Shown here: piece after piece, positions 36,321 through 43,640 of the stretch
Numbering within the stretch: the stretch's first letter is position 1
Layout: every line of letters starts with the position of its first letter
Origin: Paenibacillus sp. VTT E-133291
GTDB taxonomy: Bacteria > Bacillota > Bacilli > Paenibacillales > Paenibacillaceae
Length of the DNA stretch: 64,000 bases
Assembly (NCBI RefSeq): GCF_002264395.1
Contig: NZ_NFVA01000030.1
Location: 1 to 64,000, forward strand
Reading direction: 5' to 3'
Notes under the pieces: model-generated
The model's input: only the letters and a program-made list of their open reading frames with translations
The model's database searches: none
Told to the model about the DNA's origin: nothing
Program-made: the position numbers and the translations under genes

Positions 36321-37235
36321 TTAGCCTTCGATTAATCCCTTCTTGATCAGGAAATTACGAGCTACATCCTCTTCCTTGAGCGCATCCACATCAACCTCTG
36401 CGTTCAACTGCTGCATTTCTTCGTCACTGATTTGTCCGCTCAATTGATTCAGGATACCTTCCAATTCAGGGTATTTATCTAGCGTATCCTGACGAATAAT
36501 CGGTCCTGCATCATACGGTGGGAAGAACTCTTTATCATCTTGCAAAATCACCAGATCATGTACTTTAATTTGCGCATCCGTCGCATAGGCATTGGTTACA
36601 TCGGTTTCCCCATCGTCGATCGAACGATACATGATACCATGGTCCATTCCTTTGCTCTGCTTGAAATCCATACCATAAAGTTTTTGGATACCAGGGTATC
36701 CGTCCTCACGATCCAAGAACTCGAACTCTACGCCAAGAACCATATCTCCAGATACTTTCGCCAAATCGCTAAAGGTCTTCAGATTGTACTTCTCAGCCGT
36801 TTCACGACTAACCGCTAAAGTATAGGTATTATTTATGCCGAATGGGTCCAGGAACGCCAATCCATCTTTTTCGAGCAGCTCTCTGGTTTTTGTCAACGAC
36901 TCCTCAGAGTTTCCCGTCTCCTGCTGATAGTAATTGGCTACAATGGTACCGGTATAATCCGGATATAGCTGGATGTTATTATTCTCAAGTGCACTCCAAG
37001 CTACATTAGAGCCGCCTAAGTTCATCTGGCGCTTCACTTTAATATCGGTTTTATCTTCTATTAGATCTGCCATCATATGAGCGAGTAGAACATTCTCCGT
37101 GAAGTTTTTGGAGCCAATCGTAATTTCTCCACCGTTACCGGCAGCAGCTTTATTATTCCCGCCACCACATCCAGTAAGTAACGCCCCTATTAATACTGTA
37201 GTTAAAACGCCTGTCATTAATTTTGGAATTTTCAT
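36321..37235 (-). CDS. Osmoprotectant-binding lipoprotein (OpuCC/OpuBC-like)
   Basis: The 304-residue ABC substrate-binding protein has lipobox LLTGCGG. The family opening ITIGSKNFTENVLLAHMMADLIE is followed by LYPDYTGTIVANYY, LGVEFEFLDREDGYPGIQKLYG and TDVTNAYATDAQI, as in choline/glycine betaine receptors. ATG after AAAGGGGAG. Last gene of the three-gene opu-like unit. Confidence 0.88.
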   Translation of the reverse strand: MKIPKLMTGVLTTVLIGALLTGCGGGNNKAAAGNGGEITIGSKNFTENVLLAHMMADLIEDKTDIKVKRQMNLGGSNVAWSALENNNIQLYPDYTGTIVANYYQQETGNSEESLTKTRELLEKDGLAFLDPFGINNTYTLAVSRETAEKYNLKTFSDLAKVSGDMVLGVEFEFLDREDGYPGIQKLYGMDFKQSKGMDHGIMYRSIDDGETDVTNAYATDAQIKVHDLVILQDDKEFFPPYDAGPIIRQDTLDKYPELEGILNQLSGQISDEEMQQLNAEVDVDALKEEDVARNFLIKKGLIEG

Positions 37236-37279: not shown

Positions 37280-37936
37280 TTATACTTTTAATCCCTTTGG
37301 AGTCGTTACCCGTTCAAGCAAGCCGAGTAGATAATCCAGTATGAGTGCAAGAATCGCGGCTGGAATAGCGCCAAGCAAAGTTAGAGCTTCGATGTTCCGT
37401 TGAATACCGAGGAAAATAAATTCACCCAATCCGCCAGCACCGATAAAGGCTGCCAAGGTTGCTGTCCCAACATTAATAACTGCAGCAGTGCGGATCCCCG
37501 CCATAATTACACTTAAAGCTAAAGGGAGTTGAACCCTGAATAGAATCTGCCAGTTCTTCATCCCCATTCCTCGGGCCGCTTCCACGATAGACTGATCCAC
37601 ATCCGTAATTCCCGTGTAGGTGTTGCGGATAATTGGCAGTAGTGAATACAGAAATAATGCAACAACCGCCGTCTTCATTCCTATGCCAAATAGAGGAATC
37701 ATAAATCCGAGCATCGCCAGACTAGGTATCGTCTGAAGAATCCCTGCCGCGCCAAGCGTAATGCCTTTCAGAGGTTTAACCCGGGTAATCATAATTCCAA
37801 GCGCAATGCCAACAATAATTGCAAATAACATGGACAAGAGCACAAGTTGCATATGCACTCCCATAGAATGAATCAAATCATCTCTACGTATATCTAATTG
37901 ATAGATGAGTTGTTGCCATAACGATTGATCTCTCAT
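37280..37936 (-). CDS. Osmoprotectant ABC permease (OpuCB-like)
   Basis: The 218-residue permease has about five to six helices and the coupling segment EAARGMGMKNWQILFRVQLPLALSVIMAGIR (in two parts). ATG at 37936 lies after AGGAGGAAG and overlaps the stop of the ATPase gene as ATGA. Related loci such as opuB and opuC usually encode two permeases; only one is seen here, so it may work as a homodimer or share a partner encoded elsewhere. Confidence 0.85.
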   Translation of the reverse strand: MRDQSLWQQLIYQLDIRRDDLIHSMGVHMQLVLLSMLFAIIVGIALGIMITRVKPLKGITLGAAGILQTIPSLAMLGFMIPLFGIGMKTAVVALFLYSLLPIIRNTYTGITDVDQSIVEAARGMGMKNWQILFRVQLPLALSVIMAGIRTAAVINVGTATLAAFIGAGGLGEFIFLGIQRNIEALTLLGAIPAAILALILDYLLGLLERVTTPKGLKV

Positions 37937-39072
37937 ACAGACACTTCCTCCTCCTTCACGCCTCCCCATTGTGCAGCAAACGCCGTCAGAAGACTGCCTC
38001 TTGTAACAATCCCGGCAATGTTCCCCTCAGCGGTTACGATCGGAATAATGCCGTAAGGAGCTTCCGTAATTAATGATAATGCGTCTCTTGCTGTTGCTGT
38101 ATCCTGCAGCACCACCCCAGGTGGTGTCATAATTTCTTCGATAGTAAGACTTTGTTCCATTTTAGCGGTAACATCATAAGCGGAGACGATGCCAAGCAAC
38201 TTACCTTTTTCGTTTCCAACCAGTAAGGTATCCATTTTGCGTTGACGCATAAAGGTAAGAGCCTTACCCAGTGTGCGGCTTGGAAGGGATGTAGATGGAT
38301 TGTCACGCATGACTTCTGTTACGGGGATATACTCAGGGTTTTGGTAAATACGGTTTTTGCCGATAAATGACTCTACAAAATCATTAGCAGGCCGGCTGAG
38401 TAGCTCATACGGTGTATCTAGTTGAACGATTTCACCATCTTTTAGGATAGCGATTTTATCTCCAAGCTTCAGTGCTTCATCCATATCATGTGTTACAAAT
38501 ACTATTGTCTTCTTCACTTCTTGTTGCATGCGTAGCAGTTCATCCTGCAGCTGCTCACGGGTAATAGGGTCCAAAGCACCAAATGGTTCATCCATCAATA
38601 TAATCTCGGGATCAGCTGCCAATGCACGAGCTACACCTACACGCTGCTGCTGTCCACCTGATAATTGTTTCGGATAACGTTTAGCATATAAGACCGGATC
38701 AAGTCCGACTAGACGGAGCATTTCGAGCACCCGTTCTTTTTTCTTATTCACATCCCACCCCTTTAGGTCGGGAATCAGGCCTACATTGTCTTCTATGGTG
38801 TAATGCGGGAATAAACCAGCTTGTTGTATAACATAACCGATGTTCTTGCGGAGAGTTACGGGGTTCTCCTTGGTGATATCTTTGCCGTGGATATAAATAT
38901 GGCCTGAAGTATGCGGAACAAGACGATTTATCATTTTCATCGTTGTTGTCTTTCCGCAACCGCTCGGGCCGATCAATACTAGTATTTCTCCAGCTGCGAT
39001 TTCAAAACTAATATTCTTAACTGCTTCATAACCATTTGCATACTTCTTACCTACTCCTTCAAATTTCAGCAT
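37933..39072 (-). CDS. Osmoprotectant ABC ATPase with CBS domains (OpuCA-like)
   Basis: The 379-residue ATPase has Walker A GPSGCGKTT, signature LSGGQQQRVGVARAL, Walker [13 protein letters not shown] and switch VFVTHDMDEA in the first 240 residues. Two CBS motifs follow (about 255-310 and 315-370) that sense ionic strength or nucleotides in related transporters. ATG after AAGGAGG. First gene of the opu-like operon. A pair of inverted arms around its promoter may be the target of the nearby RCK_C regulator. Confidence 0.9.
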   Translation of the reverse strand: MLKFEGVGKKYANGYEAVKNISFEIAAGEILVLIGPSGCGKTTTMKMINRLVPHTSGHIYIHGKDITKENPVTLRKNIGYVIQQAGLFPHYTIEDNVGLIPDLKGWDVNKKKERVLEMLRLVGLDPVLYAKRYPKQLSGGQQQRVGVARALAADPEIILMDEPFGALDPITREQLQDELLRMQQEVKKTIVFVTHDMDEALKLGDKIAILKDGEIVQLDTPYELLSRPANDFVESFIGKNRIYQNPEYIPVTEVMRDNPSTSLPSRTLGKALTFMRQRKMDTLLVGNEKGKLLGIVSAYDVTAKMEQSLTIEEIMTPPGVVLQDTATARDALSLITEAPYGIIPIVTAEGNIAGIVTRGSLLTAFAAQWGGVKEEEVSV

Positions 39073-39137
39073 GGGTTTCCTCCTTCTAATAACTATCGTC
39101 AGATCATCTCTCCGGCGACTCTGTAAGTTAAACTATA

Positions 39138-39187
39138 ACAAACAACTCCCAAACTGACAACCTATATACTAGCTATAAGTTGTTTGT
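39138..39187. promoter_or_regulatory. Inverted arms around the opu promoter, candidate RCK_C-repressor operator
   Basis: ACAAACAACT (39138-39147) and AGTTGTTTGT (39178-39187) form a perfect 10-bp inverted pair separated by 30 bases. A minus-strand promoter (TTTACA then TATATA, 16 bases apart) lies within the span, so the upstream arm overlaps its -35. Two well-spaced half-sites suit a tetrameric repressor. The regulator is inferred from proximity. Confidence 0.5.
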
Positions 39188-39212
39188 AAATAATTGTAAT
39201 AATATAATTATA

Positions 39213-39248
39213 AAAAAAACTATCCAGTGATAAACCCTGCTGGATAGC
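39213..39248 (-). terminator. Intrinsic terminator of the mntH-regulator unit
   Basis: CTATCCAG pairs with CTGGATAG on the minus strand, with a T run of eight just after it. Confidence 0.75.
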
Positions 39249-39264
39249 CTTTTTCAATCTATTT

Positions 39265-39900
39265 TTATAAATGATTCTCTGAATTTTTATTGATAAATTG
39301 TTCCGTTCTTTGGTACATTTTCTCATCACCAACTGCTACAAGTACATCATGTTCTCTGAGGATGACATGAGGACCTGGGGAGATCGTTATATTAGCACCT
39401 CGGCGAAGCGCTATAATCGTAGCACCTGTATTCTGCCAAAATTGTAATGTTCCAATGGTTTTGCCAACCACATGTGATTCTTCATGGATTGTGATTTCTT
39501 CCGGATGGTACGGCTTTAAATTCTTCATCCGGTCTGATGCTTCGATAATTCCAGTGAGTACCCTTTCGAACTTACCGTCGAGCTTCTTTTTTTCAAGCAA
39601 CAATTGCTCTAGGTCCTGTTTCAACGAATAAGCTGATTTCAGATAGTTATTCCTGGTAATATACTCATACGCCTTTTGATCAGAGATGACAATAATCTCT
39701 TTCCCCTGTGAAACAAACACTATATTCTCATCCTTCAATAATCCCATAGCCTTACGAATCGTCTCGGGAGAAACATGATATTGCCCTGCCAATAGAGAAC
39801 GCCCGGAAAGCTTACTCTGTACGGGAAATTCCCCGCTTACAATTCTTTGTGCAATATCAAGGGCTATGGACTTATAACCGGATATTTCTTGCATGGACAT
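39265..39900 (-). CDS. GntR-RCK_C regulator, BusR-like, probably c-di-AMP-responsive
   Basis: The 211-residue protein has a GntR-type winged helix (about 5-75, ALDIAQRIVSGEF, VSPETIRKAMGLL), a central coiled coil (KQDLEQLLLEKKKLDGKF) and a C-terminal RCK_C/TrkA_C domain (about 133-205, VVGKTIGTLQFW, ATIIALRRGANITISPGP, HDVLVAVG). This matches BusR of lactic acid bacteria, which represses a glycine betaine transporter when bound to c-di-AMP. The osmoprotectant operon starts about 190 bp downstream. It lies 81 bp after mntH, possibly co-transcribed. ATG after AAGGAG; an upstream frame extension to 39942 was not used. Confidence 0.82.
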   Translation of the reverse strand: MSMQEISGYKSIALDIAQRIVSGEFPVQSKLSGRSLLAGQYHVSPETIRKAMGLLKDENIVFVSQGKEIIVISDQKAYEYITRNNYLKSAYSLKQDLEQLLLEKKKLDGKFERVLTGIIEASDRMKNLKPYHPEEITIHEESHVVGKTIGTLQFWQNTGATIIALRRGANITISPGPHVILREHDVLVAVGDEKMYQRTEQFINKNSENHL

Positions 39901-39981: not shown

Positions 39982-41289
39982 TTATACAAACATTTGATAT
40001 ACCAAAAATAAATTTAACGATACAACCAGACCCGAGATAACCCAGCCGAGCGCAGCTGTCATCTTACGGTTCACTAACCCGCCCATAATCTGACGATTGC
40101 TTGTAAACACAACCAGTGGCACCAGTGCAAAGGCAATCCCAAAGGACAAGATCACCTGGCTGATCACGAGCGCCTTCGTTGGATTTACACCAAAGCCGAT
40201 GATCGCCAAAGGTGGAATAATTGTAATCGCACGGCGTAAGTACAGGTTAATTCTTTTGTTGATGAAGCCTTGCATCACTACATCACCAGCCATAGTTCCT
40301 ACAGAAGAGCTCGATAGTCCTGCGATGAGTAGTCCTAAACCAAAGGAGATGGCCGTTACAGGTCCAGCTAAATGACTAAATTGCTGAAACGCAACATCCA
40401 AATCCTCAACCACGATACCATTTTTGAAAAATAATGCGGCTGAGACAATAACCATTGCCAGATTCACTGCCCCTGCAATAATCATTGCAATAATAATATC
40501 TATGAATTCCAGTTTAAAGATCTGTTTCTTCTCCGCTTCATTTACTCCGACAATTCGGTTCTGTGTAAGGGATGAATGTAGATAAATGGCATGTGGCATC
40601 ACGGTCGCGCCTAGAATTCCTGCGGCTAAAAGGATGCTATCCACCCCTTCAAACTTAGGTGTGAACATGCCTACAGCAACTGCCCCCATATCCGGCTTAG
40701 CTACAATAACTTGAAAAGCAAAGGCTAATACAACTATAAGAATCATTGCAGCAATTCCTGCCTCAAGGGAACGGTAACCCCGGCGCTGAAGCTCTAGGAT
40801 AGCAAATGAACCCACTGCAGTGATGAGTGCTGCCGGCAGCATGGGAATATCAAATAATAGATAAAGCCCCAATGCCGCCCCGATAAACTCCGCCAGATCC
40901 GTAGCTATAATCACCAGTTCACTTTGAATCCATAAGAAGATCGAAACACTCTTCGGAAAACGATCATGAGCGATCTCCGGCAGGTTCTTTCCTGTAGCAA
41001 TACCTAGCTTGGCGGATAACGCCTGAATAAGAACGGCCATTAAATTCGAGGCTACAATCACCCACAATAAAAGATAGCCGTATTTTGAGCCTGCCGTAAT
41101 GTTGGTGGCAAAATTACCCGGATCCAGATAAGCAACCGCAGCGATAAACGCTGGACCTAAGAAAGGCAGTAATCTTTTAATGCCTTTGGTCTCCCCATTA
41201 AGTACGGCCTGCGCCGAAATGGAGTTTTTATGTTGTCTCATTTGCGGTTGTTCTATATGTGGTTTTTCTATTAAAGTTTGTTCCAACAT
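39982..41289 (-). CDS. mntH: Nramp-type manganese/divalent metal transporter
   Basis: The 435-residue proton-coupled importer of Mn(II) and related metals has 11 predicted helices. Family motifs are GPAFIAAVAYLDPGNFATNI (helix 1, metal-binding Asp-Pro-Gly-Asn), the helix 6 segment GATVMPHAIYLHSSLTQNR (Met-Pro-His) and GLSSSSVGTMAGDVVMQGF. ATG at 41289 follows GGAGG by 7 bases. A MntR-like palindrome overlaps the promoter, and a close copy occurs upstream of the metal ATPase at 7319-7338. The next gene is the RCK_C regulator. Confidence 0.95.
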   Translation of the reverse strand: MLEQTLIEKPHIEQPQMRQHKNSISAQAVLNGETKGIKRLLPFLGPAFIAAVAYLDPGNFATNITAGSKYGYLLLWVIVASNLMAVLIQALSAKLGIATGKNLPEIAHDRFPKSVSIFLWIQSELVIIATDLAEFIGAALGLYLLFDIPMLPAALITAVGSFAILELQRRGYRSLEAGIAAMILIVVLAFAFQVIVAKPDMGAVAVGMFTPKFEGVDSILLAAGILGATVMPHAIYLHSSLTQNRIVGVNEAEKKQIFKLEFIDIIIAMIIAGAVNLAMVIVSAALFFKNGIVVEDLDVAFQQFSHLAGPVTAISFGLGLLIAGLSSSSVGTMAGDVVMQGFINKRINLYLRRAITIIPPLAIIGFGVNPTKALVISQVILSFGIAFALVPLVVFTSNRQIMGGLVNRKMTAALGWVISGLVVSLNLFLVYQMFV

Positions 41290-41333
41290 GTCAATTCCTC
41301 CTCTTGCCCAAAAAAAGTTGTCTATATACACGA

Positions 41334-41548: not shown

Positions 41549-43228
41549 TTACGAATTTTTCTTCCATGTATCCTTCAGCGGTACAATTCGGTTCAGTACC
41601 AGCTTATCTGCTGTGGTATATTTCTTATCCACACAGAAGAATCCATGCCGGATGAATTGAAATTTATCTTCTGGAAGTGCACTCGCCATGGAAGGCTCCA
41701 ACAAACAATCTTTCAGAATGGTTAGAGAATCTGGATTAAGATACGCGTCCCAGCGTTCATCCTCTTCTTTAGGACCCTCGTTATCTTTTAGCAACCTCTC
41801 ATATTGATGAACTTCCGCCTTGATCGCGTGCTCAGCCGATACCCAGTGGATGGTCGCCTTAACCTTCCGTTCATTAAATCCGCTTCCACTCTTCGTTCTC
41901 GGATCATAGGTGCAGCGAAGCTCTATAACTTCTCCAGTTGCTTCGTCCTTGAGCACCTCATTGCACTTAACGAAGTAGGCGCCCTTTAACCTAACCTCAT
42001 TCCCTATGGTCAGCCTGTGATAACCTTTGGGTGGCTCCTCCATGAAATCCTCTTGTTCAATATAAAGCGTCCGTGAAAAAGGAACTTCCCTTTCCCCAAG
42101 CGTCTTATCCTCACTGTTATTCTCAATCTTCAGCCATTCGCTTTGATTCTCAGGGTAGTTAGTAATAACTACCTTTAGAGGCTTTAGAACAGCCATCACG
42201 CTAGTTGCCTTCGCCTTCAAATCTTGTCTTAGCGAATGCTCCAACATGGCAATATCTACAATGGTGCTATTCCTAACAAATCCAATTTCCTTCACAAAAT
42301 TCCGAATACTCTCCGGCGTAAAACCTCTTCTCCGCAGTCCGCGAAGCGTTGGAAGTCTTGGATCATCCCAGCCATCCACATAATGTCCTGTAACCAGTTG
42401 TCTAATATACCGTTTGCTAGTAACGACGCCGGTGATATTTACGCGTCCGAACTCCCTTTGCTTTGGAGCCTCAGGGGTATCCAGTTCATTCAGCACCCAC
42501 TCATACAGTGGTCGATGATCCTTAAACTCAATCGAACATAGGGAATGCGTAATCCCTTCGATCGCATCTTGTATAGGATGGGCAAAATCATACATCGGAT
42601 AGATGCACCAATCGTTGCCTGTTCTATAATGCTCCGCATGAATGATTCTGTAAATCACTGGATCACGCAAGTTGATATTAGGTGAGCTCATATCTATTTT
42701 GGCCCGTAATACTCTGGCTCCCGTCGGATAGGCTCCATTTCTCATCTCCGTGAATAACTTCAAATTCTCTTCCACAGAACGCTCCCGATAAGGGCTGTTC
42801 GTTCCCGGCTCCGTAAGCGTTCCTCTATAAGCTGACACCGCTTCAGGTGATAAATCGCAAACGTAGGCTTTTCCTTTTTGGATTAACTTTACCGCGCTAT
42901 TGTATATTTTTTCCGAATAGTCTGATCCGTAGAAAGTATGGTCTGGCGGGTAGCCCATCCATAGCATATCTTCGCAAATAGCATTTACATACTCCAGATC
43001 CTCTTTTAAAGGATTGGTGTCATCGAACCGCAAATGGAACTTTCCGCCATACTTCTTCGCCGTCGTATAGTTCGTGTGAATAGCATACGCGCTGCCAATA
43101 TGCAGATACCCATTAGGCTCCGGTGGGAATCTCGTGCAAATATCTCTACTGTAAGTCCCAGCTTCCAGCTCTTCTTGAATCAATCTGTCGATGTAACTCT
43201 CTGCTAATACTTCCGGTTCCTTGTTCAT
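41549..43228 (-). CDS. glnS: Glutaminyl-tRNA synthetase
   Basis: Class I synthetase of 559 residues that charges tRNA-Gln directly. The HIGH-type motif is in PPEPNGYLHIGSA (about residue 37) and the KMSKS-type motif in GVVTSKRYIRQL. The two-part beta-barrel anticodon domain is at the C-terminus. Many Firmicutes lack this enzyme and use Glu-tRNA-Gln amidation instead, so its presence points to acquisition in this lineage. ATG at 43228 follows AGGAGG by 8 bases. A T-box with a CAA specifier precedes it. Confidence 0.95.
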   Translation of the reverse strand: MNKEPEVLAESYIDRLIQEELEAGTYSRDICTRFPPEPNGYLHIGSAYAIHTNYTTAKKYGGKFHLRFDDTNPLKEDLEYVNAICEDMLWMGYPPDHTFYGSDYSEKIYNSAVKLIQKGKAYVCDLSPEAVSAYRGTLTEPGTNSPYRERSVEENLKLFTEMRNGAYPTGARVLRAKIDMSSPNINLRDPVIYRIIHAEHYRTGNDWCIYPMYDFAHPIQDAIEGITHSLCSIEFKDHRPLYEWVLNELDTPEAPKQREFGRVNITGVVTSKRYIRQLVTGHYVDGWDDPRLPTLRGLRRRGFTPESIRNFVKEIGFVRNSTIVDIAMLEHSLRQDLKAKATSVMAVLKPLKVVITNYPENQSEWLKIENNSEDKTLGEREVPFSRTLYIEQEDFMEEPPKGYHRLTIGNEVRLKGAYFVKCNEVLKDEATGEVIELRCTYDPRTKSGSGFNERKVKATIHWVSAEHAIKAEVHQYERLLKDNEGPKEEDERWDAYLNPDSLTILKDCLLEPSMASALPEDKFQFIRHGFFCVDKKYTTADKLVLNRIVPLKDTWKKNS

Positions 43229-43275
43229 TGTTATTACCTCCTGTTTATGAGTGATATCCGCTTTGTTTATCTGCA

Positions 43276-43565
43276 AAATAAAAAGAACCTCACCTCCAAG
43301 ACTTATGGTCTTGGGGACGAAATTCTCGCGGTACCACCCCAGGTTCATTAATATGTCGCCATATTAATCTCATCAAGTACGGCAATGCAACTTACGCAGC
43401 GCTTATACTCTAGCTCTATAACAGGAGCTCCCGTCATACCATCCCCGTCGATCGGTTCCGATATACCGCTCAGAGGCTTGTTTCGATAAATTCTCCCTTA
43501 CCCTGTTCTCATCATCCAGGGCTCGCTGTGAAGGAATGATTTTATTTACTCTTCTCGTCATCGCG
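43276..43565 (-). ncRNA. T-box riboswitch controlling glnS
   Basis: On the minus strand stem I starts GACGAGAAGAGTAA (about 43560). The specifier loop reads GAAA-CAA-GCCTCTGAG, a glutamine codon, in agreement with the downstream gene. The antiterminator sequence TGGGGTGGTACCGCG lies near 43345-43330. A terminator of CCAAGAC/GTCTTGG with an extended GGTGAGG arm is followed by TTCTTTTTATTTT (43276-43320). Confidence 0.92.
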
Positions 43566-43640
43566 TTTGATTATTTTGTATAGGATACCAAATAGAGGGT
43601 CCTATGTAAATGGTGCTTTCACTTCTATTTAGCTTACGCT

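What the first reader, a model, noticed from the sequence alone, without database searches (positions are those of the whole stretch)
39138..39900. BusR-like GntR-RCK_C regulator and its possible operator at the opu operon
The RCK_C domain fused to GntR matches the c-di-AMP-responsive BusR plan, and an osmoprotectant operon begins just downstream. An inverted pair of 10-bp arms (ACAAACAACT) brackets that operon's promoter. This points to c-di-AMP-linked osmotic control outside the lactic acid bacteria, together with the possible co-transcription of the regulator with mntH.
Basis: partly seen in the sequence, partly recalled or inferred. Interest (0 to 1): 0.65.

Follow-up and report, generated by a model that had tools for sequence, protein, structure and literature searches.

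The report
BusR-type repressor and its opu operator
A Paenibacillus-type bacterium carries a relative of BusR, a repressor that in other bacteria uses the messenger c-di-AMP to switch osmoprotectant uptake off, and a conserved DNA site under the promoter of the neighbouring osmoprotectant operon suggests where it acts.

Summary
The regulator is real: ORF 39265-39900 (-) aligns over its length to BusR of Streptococcus agalactiae (32%) and S. mutans (35%), with wHTH, coiled coil and RCK_C. The opu operon follows directly. Both 10-bp arms exist, but pairing them is wrong: the 39138-39147 arm lies in the -35/-10 spacer and is not conserved. The conserved operator is 39154-39186 (minus strand CAAACAACTT-N13-AGGTTGTCAG); its right half contains the -35. 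It is the only perfect site in the genome. In 61 sampled genus genomes, the 8 with intact busR all have the opu ATPase gene beside it and the site (one with a mismatch); 3 with the ATPase but no busR lack it. mntH adjacency is local (1 of 80 named loci). The spacing is N23; LAB-like loci and the literature give N22 with an equally long coiled coil, and four relatives carry both. In five relatives a c-di-AMP riboswitch follows a BusR-type site, independently tying these promoters to c-di-AMP. Ligand binding and repression are inferred. BusR outside lactic acid bacteria is already known in C. difficile (recalled). What looks new is the operator type, its spacing and the serial sensors.

The parts
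39265..39900 (-). busR-like gene, 211 aa (ATG at 39900): wHTH 9-68, helix 74-83, coiled-coil helix 85-127, RCK_C 135-202
39154..39186 (-). predicted BusR operator CAAACAACTT-N13-AGGTTGTCAG (nAC-N23-GTC); only perfect site in the genome
39155..39160 (-). -35 box TTGTCA inside the operator's right half
39132..39137 (-). -10 box TATAGT with TG before it, 17 bp from the -35
39211..39256 (-). terminator-like hairpin plus U run between busR and opu (MFE -18.7 kcal/mol, z -4.63)
37933..39072 (-). OpuCA/ProV-type ATPase with CBS domains
37280..37969 (-). opu permease (ORF as listed; true start not settled)
36321..37235 (-). opu substrate-binding protein (OpuAC domain)
39982..41331 (-). mntH (Nramp) upstream of busR; neighbour, not a conserved part of the system

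Best explanation
The gene encodes a BusR ortholog. As in lactic acid bacteria it should be a tetramer: wHTH pairs held apart by a coiled coil, with RCK_C dimers that bind c-di-AMP. When K+ and osmolytes are plentiful, c-di-AMP is high, the protein grips 39154-39186, covers the -35 box and shuts off the opu importer. Under salt stress c-di-AMP falls, the repressor leaves and opu is transcribed. The CBS domains of the ATPase may add a second, post-translational c-di-AMP brake. Shown by sequence: ortholog, operon, operator, promoter overlap, co-occurrence. Inferred: c-di-AMP binding, DNA binding, repression, transported substrate.
For: The four best-scoring PDB sequences are BusR entries (7wjg E 1.2e-39, 7b5t E 5.4e-32, 7b5u, 7b5w), named as S. 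mutans and S. agalactiae BusR; MAFFT aligns both without gaps inside the shared 198 residues. The AF2 model's 13 best Foldseek hits are BusR chains; its RCK_C fits c-di-AMP-bound 7b5u at 1.1 A over 70 columns, 40% id. Residues used for DNA binding or signalling in S. agalactiae (PMC8517857) kept here: Tyr13, Arg38, Arg53, Lys54, Gly70, Trp159, Pro179-Gly180-Pro181; Trp159 in 77 of 77 usable named relatives. 66 of 80 named busR loci hold a site; 64 spacer-13 and 11 spacer-12 sites against means of 0.5 and 0.2 in 10 dinucleotide-shuffled sets. A TTGT-type -35 lies in the right half, 17 bp from the best -10 match, in 30 of 31 chosen opu promoters. Genus co-occurrence. c-di-AMP machinery: 2 DAC matches and 9 c-di-AMP riboswitches in this genome. 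In 5 relatives a c-di-AMP riboswitch follows a BusR-type site.
Against: No binding or expression data. Polar contacts to c-di-AMP differ (Asn157 and His160 are Gln), Val158 is Phe, Phe182 of the autoinhibitory patch is His, and DNA-contact positions Lys36 and Gly72 are Ser and Glu; Gln at 160 also occurs in LAB-like BusRs, so it need not abolish binding. 14 of 80 loci lack a site at the cut-off, and 33 of 80 have no opu-type ATPase match within 1.5 kb downstream. The half-site weights were drawn from these same loci, so the comparison between spacers and with shuffles is the control, not the count. The -35/17/-10 geometry was counted on Paenibacillaceae-type opu loci only; in the 8 clostridial or negativicute opu loci (L109, L111-L116, L118) it is absent, and a 5-6 of 6 TATAAT-like word lies inside the site instead, which in such AT-rich DNA is weak evidence. 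L. lactis BusR also answers to ionic strength (passage of PMC10243994).
Confidence: 0.82

Rival explanations
1. The protein represses opu at this operator but senses something other than c-di-AMP: ionic strength or K+ directly, or another nucleotide. RCK_C is then a general ion/ligand module.
For: Polar pocket residues differ from S. agalactiae; L. lactis BusR-DNA binding depends on ionic strength (PMC10243994 passage).
Against: The hydrophobic pocket core, Trp159 and the SPGP loop are kept; the RCK_C model fits the c-di-AMP complex closely; five relatives put c-di-AMP riboswitches behind the same kind of site.
Confidence: 0.12
2. The regulator mainly serves mntH (co-transcribed; metal control) and its place before opu is incidental.
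For: Same strand, 81-bp gap; no minus-strand terminator-like site found between (a weak test).
Against: mntH was found in 1 of 80 named loci; an opu-type ATPase starts within 1.5 kb downstream in 47 of 80 and stands beside busR in 8 of 8 genus genomes with intact busR. No site with up to 3 mismatches near mntH.
Confidence: 0.02
3. The reader's 10-bp arms (spacer 30) are the operator, or a second operator.
For: Exact 10/10 arms, mean 0.01 expected.
Against: The 39138 arm is not conserved beyond TTTG; in the nine busR-opu loci (L001, L003-L010) the upstream half pairs with the half at 39154-39163.
Confidence: 0.03
4. BusR activates opu rather than represses it.
For: None direct; the left half reaches upstream of the -35.
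Against: The right half contains the -35-like word itself in 30 of 31 chosen promoters, which fits occlusion; the BusRs in the papers I read (S. agalactiae, Lactococcus) repress.
Confidence: 0.03

Closest known systems
BusR of Streptococcus agalactiae / S. mutans / Lactococcus (GntR-RCK_C, c-di-AMP-responsive repressor of busAA-AB)
   Same: Full-length homology, fold, most key residues, place beside an osmoprotectant ABC operon, bipartite operator overlapping promoter elements.
   Different: Half-site AACTnACAAC-like instead of AAGTGACCA; spacing N23 instead of N22; target is a three-gene opu operon, not BusAA plus fused BusAB; Lys36Ser, Gly72Glu, Asn157Gln, Val158Phe, His160Gln, Phe182His.
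BusR of Clostridioides difficile (Oberkampf et al. 2022; content recalled, title seen)
   Same: BusR outside the lactic acid bacteria repressing a compatible-solute importer (recalled).
   Different: Not compared here; the paper is not held.
OpuCA CBS domains that bind c-di-AMP
   Same: The window ATPase's CBS half matches OpuCA structure 5ks7, E 1.8e-10 (that it is from Listeria is recalled); OpuCA binding of c-di-AMP is stated in passages of PMC5919688.
   Different: Ligand residues not examined.
ydaO/yuaA c-di-AMP riboswitch (RF00379)
   Same: Found 53-158 nt behind BusR-type sites in five relatives.
   Different: None in the window; its only Rfam match at gathering score is a T-box.

Membership tests
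BusR | GntR wHTH + long helix + RCK_C in one chain of about 210 aa | tested here: met
BusR | Coiled-coil ruler of the same length | tested here: met
   Gly72-to-Gly154 interval 82 residues in S. agalactiae, window and 77 of 77 usable named loci
BusR | c-di-AMP pocket residues (Ile153, Gly154, Asn157, Val158, Trp159, His160, Ala164, Thr165, Ile166, Gly180, Pro181) | tested here: inconclusive
   Ile153, Gly154, Trp159, Ala164, Thr165, Ile166, Gly180, Pro181 kept; Asn157 and His160 are Gln, Val158 is Phe
BusR | Autoinhibitory patch Tyr13, Trp159, Pro181, Phe182 | tested here: inconclusive
   Tyr, Trp, Pro kept; Phe182 is His
BusR | Binds c-di-AMP; c-di-AMP raises DNA affinity | not testable with these tools
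   needs ITC/EMSA
BusR | Bipartite inverted-repeat operator at the osmolyte operon's promoter | tested here: met
   (sequence evidence only)
BusR | GAC-N22-GTC exactly (the published LAB operator) | tested here: not met
   here nAC-N23-GTC; GAC-N22-GTC seen in 5 of 6 LAB-like loci examined, L154-L158 but not L153. It is a property of the four published sites, not known to be required of every BusR
BusR | Genome has c-di-AMP synthesis | tested here: met
   2 DAC-domain matches over cut-off

The most novel reading that the evidence does not exclude
In Paenibacillaceae and some anaerobic Bacillota, BusR works on a 23-bp ruler with a different half-site, tolerates both 22 and 23 bp in one cell, and heads a wider osmolyte regulon (opu, ProV-type, ectoine uptake/synthesis, a KamA-type aminomutase, a DapB-like enzyme). 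At some of these promoters c-di-AMP acts twice in series: BusR blocks initiation and a ydaO riboswitch in the leader stops elongation.
Probability: 0.55. Interest if true: 0.65.

Novelty: new variant of a known kind. Interest (0 to 1): 0.5.

Why it matters
BusR is described as a molecular ruler fitted to 22 bp. A change from an even to an odd spacing cannot come from reading each half-site a base further in or out, because that changes the spacing by two. So natural N23 sites, and loci with both spacings, put the ruler model to a direct test with an equally long coiled coil. The operator gives a tag for finding c-di-AMP osmoregulons in environmental Bacillota, and promoters with two c-di-AMP sensors in series raise the question why a cell would measure the same messenger twice.

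Tried and rejected
First operator patterns used a wrong inner spacing: (N9 core) found nothing, and the regular expression (N19) matched nothing; the inverted-repeat part gave the right spacing, used from then on. Sites with spacers 17 and 20 mostly come from overlapping words (ACAAACAAC, GTTGTCAGTTG) and were not counted. In alignment A3 the rows for G019 and G008 were cut in the wrong place and are not used; their sites are seen in A1. L011 and L012 in A1 are broken busR copies without the operator. A further BusR site in this genome: 28 matches with up to 3 mismatches against 31 for the reversed control; apart from opu none has fewer than 2 mismatches (N13 spacing only, the N12 spacing was not scanned with mismatches). 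L153 shows no LAB-type site. A leader riboswitch in L082, suspected by eye, was not found at E up to 1. In L123 I could make out no site. Literature searches: 'BusR' with c-di-AMP, Paenibacillus (12), Clostridium+osmo+regulon (50), Clostridioides difficile (85), ectoine (90), Oberkampf (93); GntR+RCK_C+c-di-AMP (13); Paenibacillus+c-di-AMP+osmo (77); GntR+TrkA-C+glycine betaine+operator (78). In those listings and the passages read I saw nothing on BusR in Paenibacillus, on N23 spacing, or on BusR combined with a riboswitch; most subscription papers are not held.

Full report
What is there. The window lies in a 7.08-Mb genome of 285 contigs; the closest named relatives of its busR are Paenibacillus. 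On the minus strand run mntH, an 81-bp gap, the regulator (39265-39900), a terminator-like hairpin with a U run (39211-39256; z -4.63), a promoter, and three opu genes: ATPase with CBS domains, permease, OpuAC-type binding protein. With this protein as query, one full GntR-RCK_C match was found in the genome; the only other match (E 2e-4) covers an RCK_C stretch.

The regulator is a BusR. phmmer against the PDB gives 7wjg (E 1.2e-39) and 7b5t (E 5.4e-32) over residues 7-206; one search names them S. mutans and S. agalactiae BusR. phmmer places two compensating one-residue gaps; MAFFT aligns both without gaps inside the shared stretch. AlphaFold2 on 44 orthologs gives pLDDT 82 but pTM only 0.41, so the placing of the domains is not reliable; the elements are those of BusR: wHTH, helix 74-83, helix 85-127, RCK_C. 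The 13 best Foldseek hits are BusR chains, with low whole-chain TM (0.35-0.39); the RCK_C domain alone fits c-di-AMP-bound 7b5u at 1.1 A. Of the BusR structure paper PMC8517857 I read parts 2-5 of 7 and found passages. I mapped its functional residues on 77 of the 80 named relatives; L042, L097 and L105 were dropped as truncated or broken. Arg38, Arg53, Gly70, Trp159, Thr165, Pro179 and Gly180 are invariant; Tyr13 is Y in 73 and F in 4. Lys36 is Ser in 64, Gly72 is Glu in 59, His160 is Gln in 74, Phe182 is His in 56. BusR is not rare: the S. agalactiae protein finds matches at E 1e-15 or better in 85 of 398 sampled genomes of the phylum and 26 of 299 of the class.

The operator. I aligned 31 opu promoters: the window and 30 named loci chosen because a spacer-13 site stands before opu. 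Site positions 4-8 and 26-30 are nearly invariant and the middle is free. The right half gives a -35-like TTGTNN (TTGTCA in 24 of 31); the best -10 match is 17 bp away in 30 of 31; the -10 is TATAGT in 26 and has G at its fifth base in 28; TG precedes it in 29. The same 17-bp geometry appears at the 10 sites placed before kamA-type (4), ehu-type (3) and PMT_2-type (3) genes, but not at the 8 clostridial or negativicute opu sites of that call. In this genome the exact site occurs once.

Is it tied to BusR? Of 537 confirmed relatives one search kept the best 80. 66 of these 80 loci have at least one site with spacer 12 or 13: 64 sites with spacer 13 and 11 with spacer 12, against means of 0.5 and 0.2 in ten dinucleotide-shuffled sets. 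The 14 without are L066, L077, L088, L089, L091, L092, L102, L103, L107, L116, L117, L119, L120, L121; some of them show weaker or spacer-14 candidates. The same 61 genus genomes were searched for the protein, the site and the ATPase. Intact busR: 8 (G000, G008, G010, G012, G018, G019, G039, G060). G023, 72% complete, has busR and opu interrupted by unread bases, carries the site, and is set aside. All 8 have the opu ATPase beside busR, and the site exactly in 7 and with one mismatch in G010. Three genomes (G021, G030, G045) have the ATPase (66-68% identical, E below 1e-120) but only partial, weak matches to busR (E 1.8e-6 or worse); in their 4.1-kb loci the site is absent within 3 mismatches in two, and the third has two 3-mismatch matches away from the promoter. 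Two genomes (G013, G029) hold broken busR remnants and no ATPase at that cut-off. In the 52 genomes other than these 8 and G023 the site pattern occurs 21 times against 29 for the reversed control, i.e. by chance.

What follows busR elsewhere. An opu-type ATPase match begins within 1.5 kb downstream in 47 of 80 named loci; by identity 41 (49-99%) are like the window's and 6 (39-45%) ProV-like (one of the six, L059, confirmed as proV). Elsewhere sites stand before other genes: a KamA-type radical-SAM protein, a DapB-like reductase (nearest gene in 8 loci), a small TIR-like protein in Cohnella, an alanine-racemase-like protein in three Sporomusa-type loci, and a ClC channel with RCK_C in L096. 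L063 and, by clustering, L065 and L082 lead into ehu (ectoine uptake) genes; ectA and ectB were identified in L065. One or two members of each gene cluster were scanned against the family libraries; the labels of the others rest on clustering.

c-di-AMP. The genome has two DAC matches and nine c-di-AMP riboswitches. The strongest independent link comes from relatives: in L063, L065, L071, L084 and L105 a c-di-AMP riboswitch starts 53-158 nt after the end of a BusR-type site and reads towards the same downstream genes. Rfam was run on 21 of the 80 named loci; a covariance model built from 11 riboswitches (7 of them from these loci, which match by construction; 4 from this genome) was run on all 80 and finds 11 in 8 loci, 5 of them directly behind a site. 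In L105 the busR frame itself looks broken. Promoters with the site are thus, in some relatives, also under an unrelated c-di-AMP sensor. The window's own opu leader has no Rfam match.

The ruler. An ATPase gene of the BusAA kind stands next to busR in the three whose ORFs were listed (L154, L155, L157); the L154 one was scanned (ABC_tran + CBS). Of four further class loci looked at, L159, L161 and L164 have AAGTAACAAC half-sites, intermediate between the two types, at N22, and L167 looks alike (register read by eye). The window and most Paenibacillaceae sites have N23. Because moving the register changes the spacing by two, 22 versus 23 is a true difference. L059, L075, L086 and L105 carry sites of both spacings near one busR (broken in L105). 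The wing-to-RCK_C interval is 82 residues in all 77.

mntH. It neighbours busR in G000, G060 and G023, and mntH was found in 1 of 80 named loci, G023's contig again. A promoter-like site lies upstream of mntH (41390-41362); a stretch there resembles a MntR box (recalled, not tested).

Standing of the claim. Membership in BusR rests on sequence, fold and operator; ligand binding and repression were not tested. BusR outside the lactic acid bacteria is already known in C. difficile (recalled). What seems new is the Paenibacillus-type operator with its 23-bp spacing, its use alongside 22 bp, and the BusR-riboswitch series in relatives; 'not seen' holds only for the searches listed under Tried and rejected.

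Noticed in passing
L063:6724-6952, L065:6729-6952, L071:11128-11460, L084:7077-7299, L105:7290-7528: BusR-type operator/promoter followed by a c-di-AMP riboswitch in the same leader, before ehu/ect, kamA-type or ProV-type genes: two c-di-AMP sensors in series.
   Followed up: partly
window 39132-39137 and 30 named opu loci: The -10 box is TATAGT in 26 of 31 opu promoters and has G at its fifth base in 28; the reason for the conserved G is unknown.
   Followed up: no
L074:7050-7904, L100:6817-7644, L104, L106, L108, L110 and others: A divergent DapB-like reductase with a BusR-type site right before it (nearest gene in 8 loci); its part in osmotic or cell-wall control is unknown.
   Followed up: partly
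L059:6833-7270, L075:6832-7266, L099:6818-7252, L105:6719-7270: Small TIR-like protein (Pfam ThsB_TIR in the two scanned) next to busR in Cohnella with its own BusR-type site, N22 in three of four.
   Followed up: partly
L111:6803-6880, L114:6684-6761, L115:6655-6730: Two BusR-type sites 43-45 bp apart before opu in Pelosinus and a related Negativicutes assembly, resembling the double site at LAB busA.
   Followed up: no
L011:1300-1737, L012:1450-1695: Broken busR remnants in two genus genomes that lack the opu ATPase at E 1e-120, as if regulator and target were lost together.
   Followed up: partly
window 43310-43570 (-): T-box leader (105 bits) upstream of a glutaminyl-tRNA synthetase-like ORF 41549-43348 (the enzyme name is my reading, from no call).
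   Followed up: no
L054 (Neobacillus mesonae MER 107): Its busR falls inside a Paenibacillus group in the BusR tree: horizontal transfer or a mislabelled assembly.
   Followed up: no
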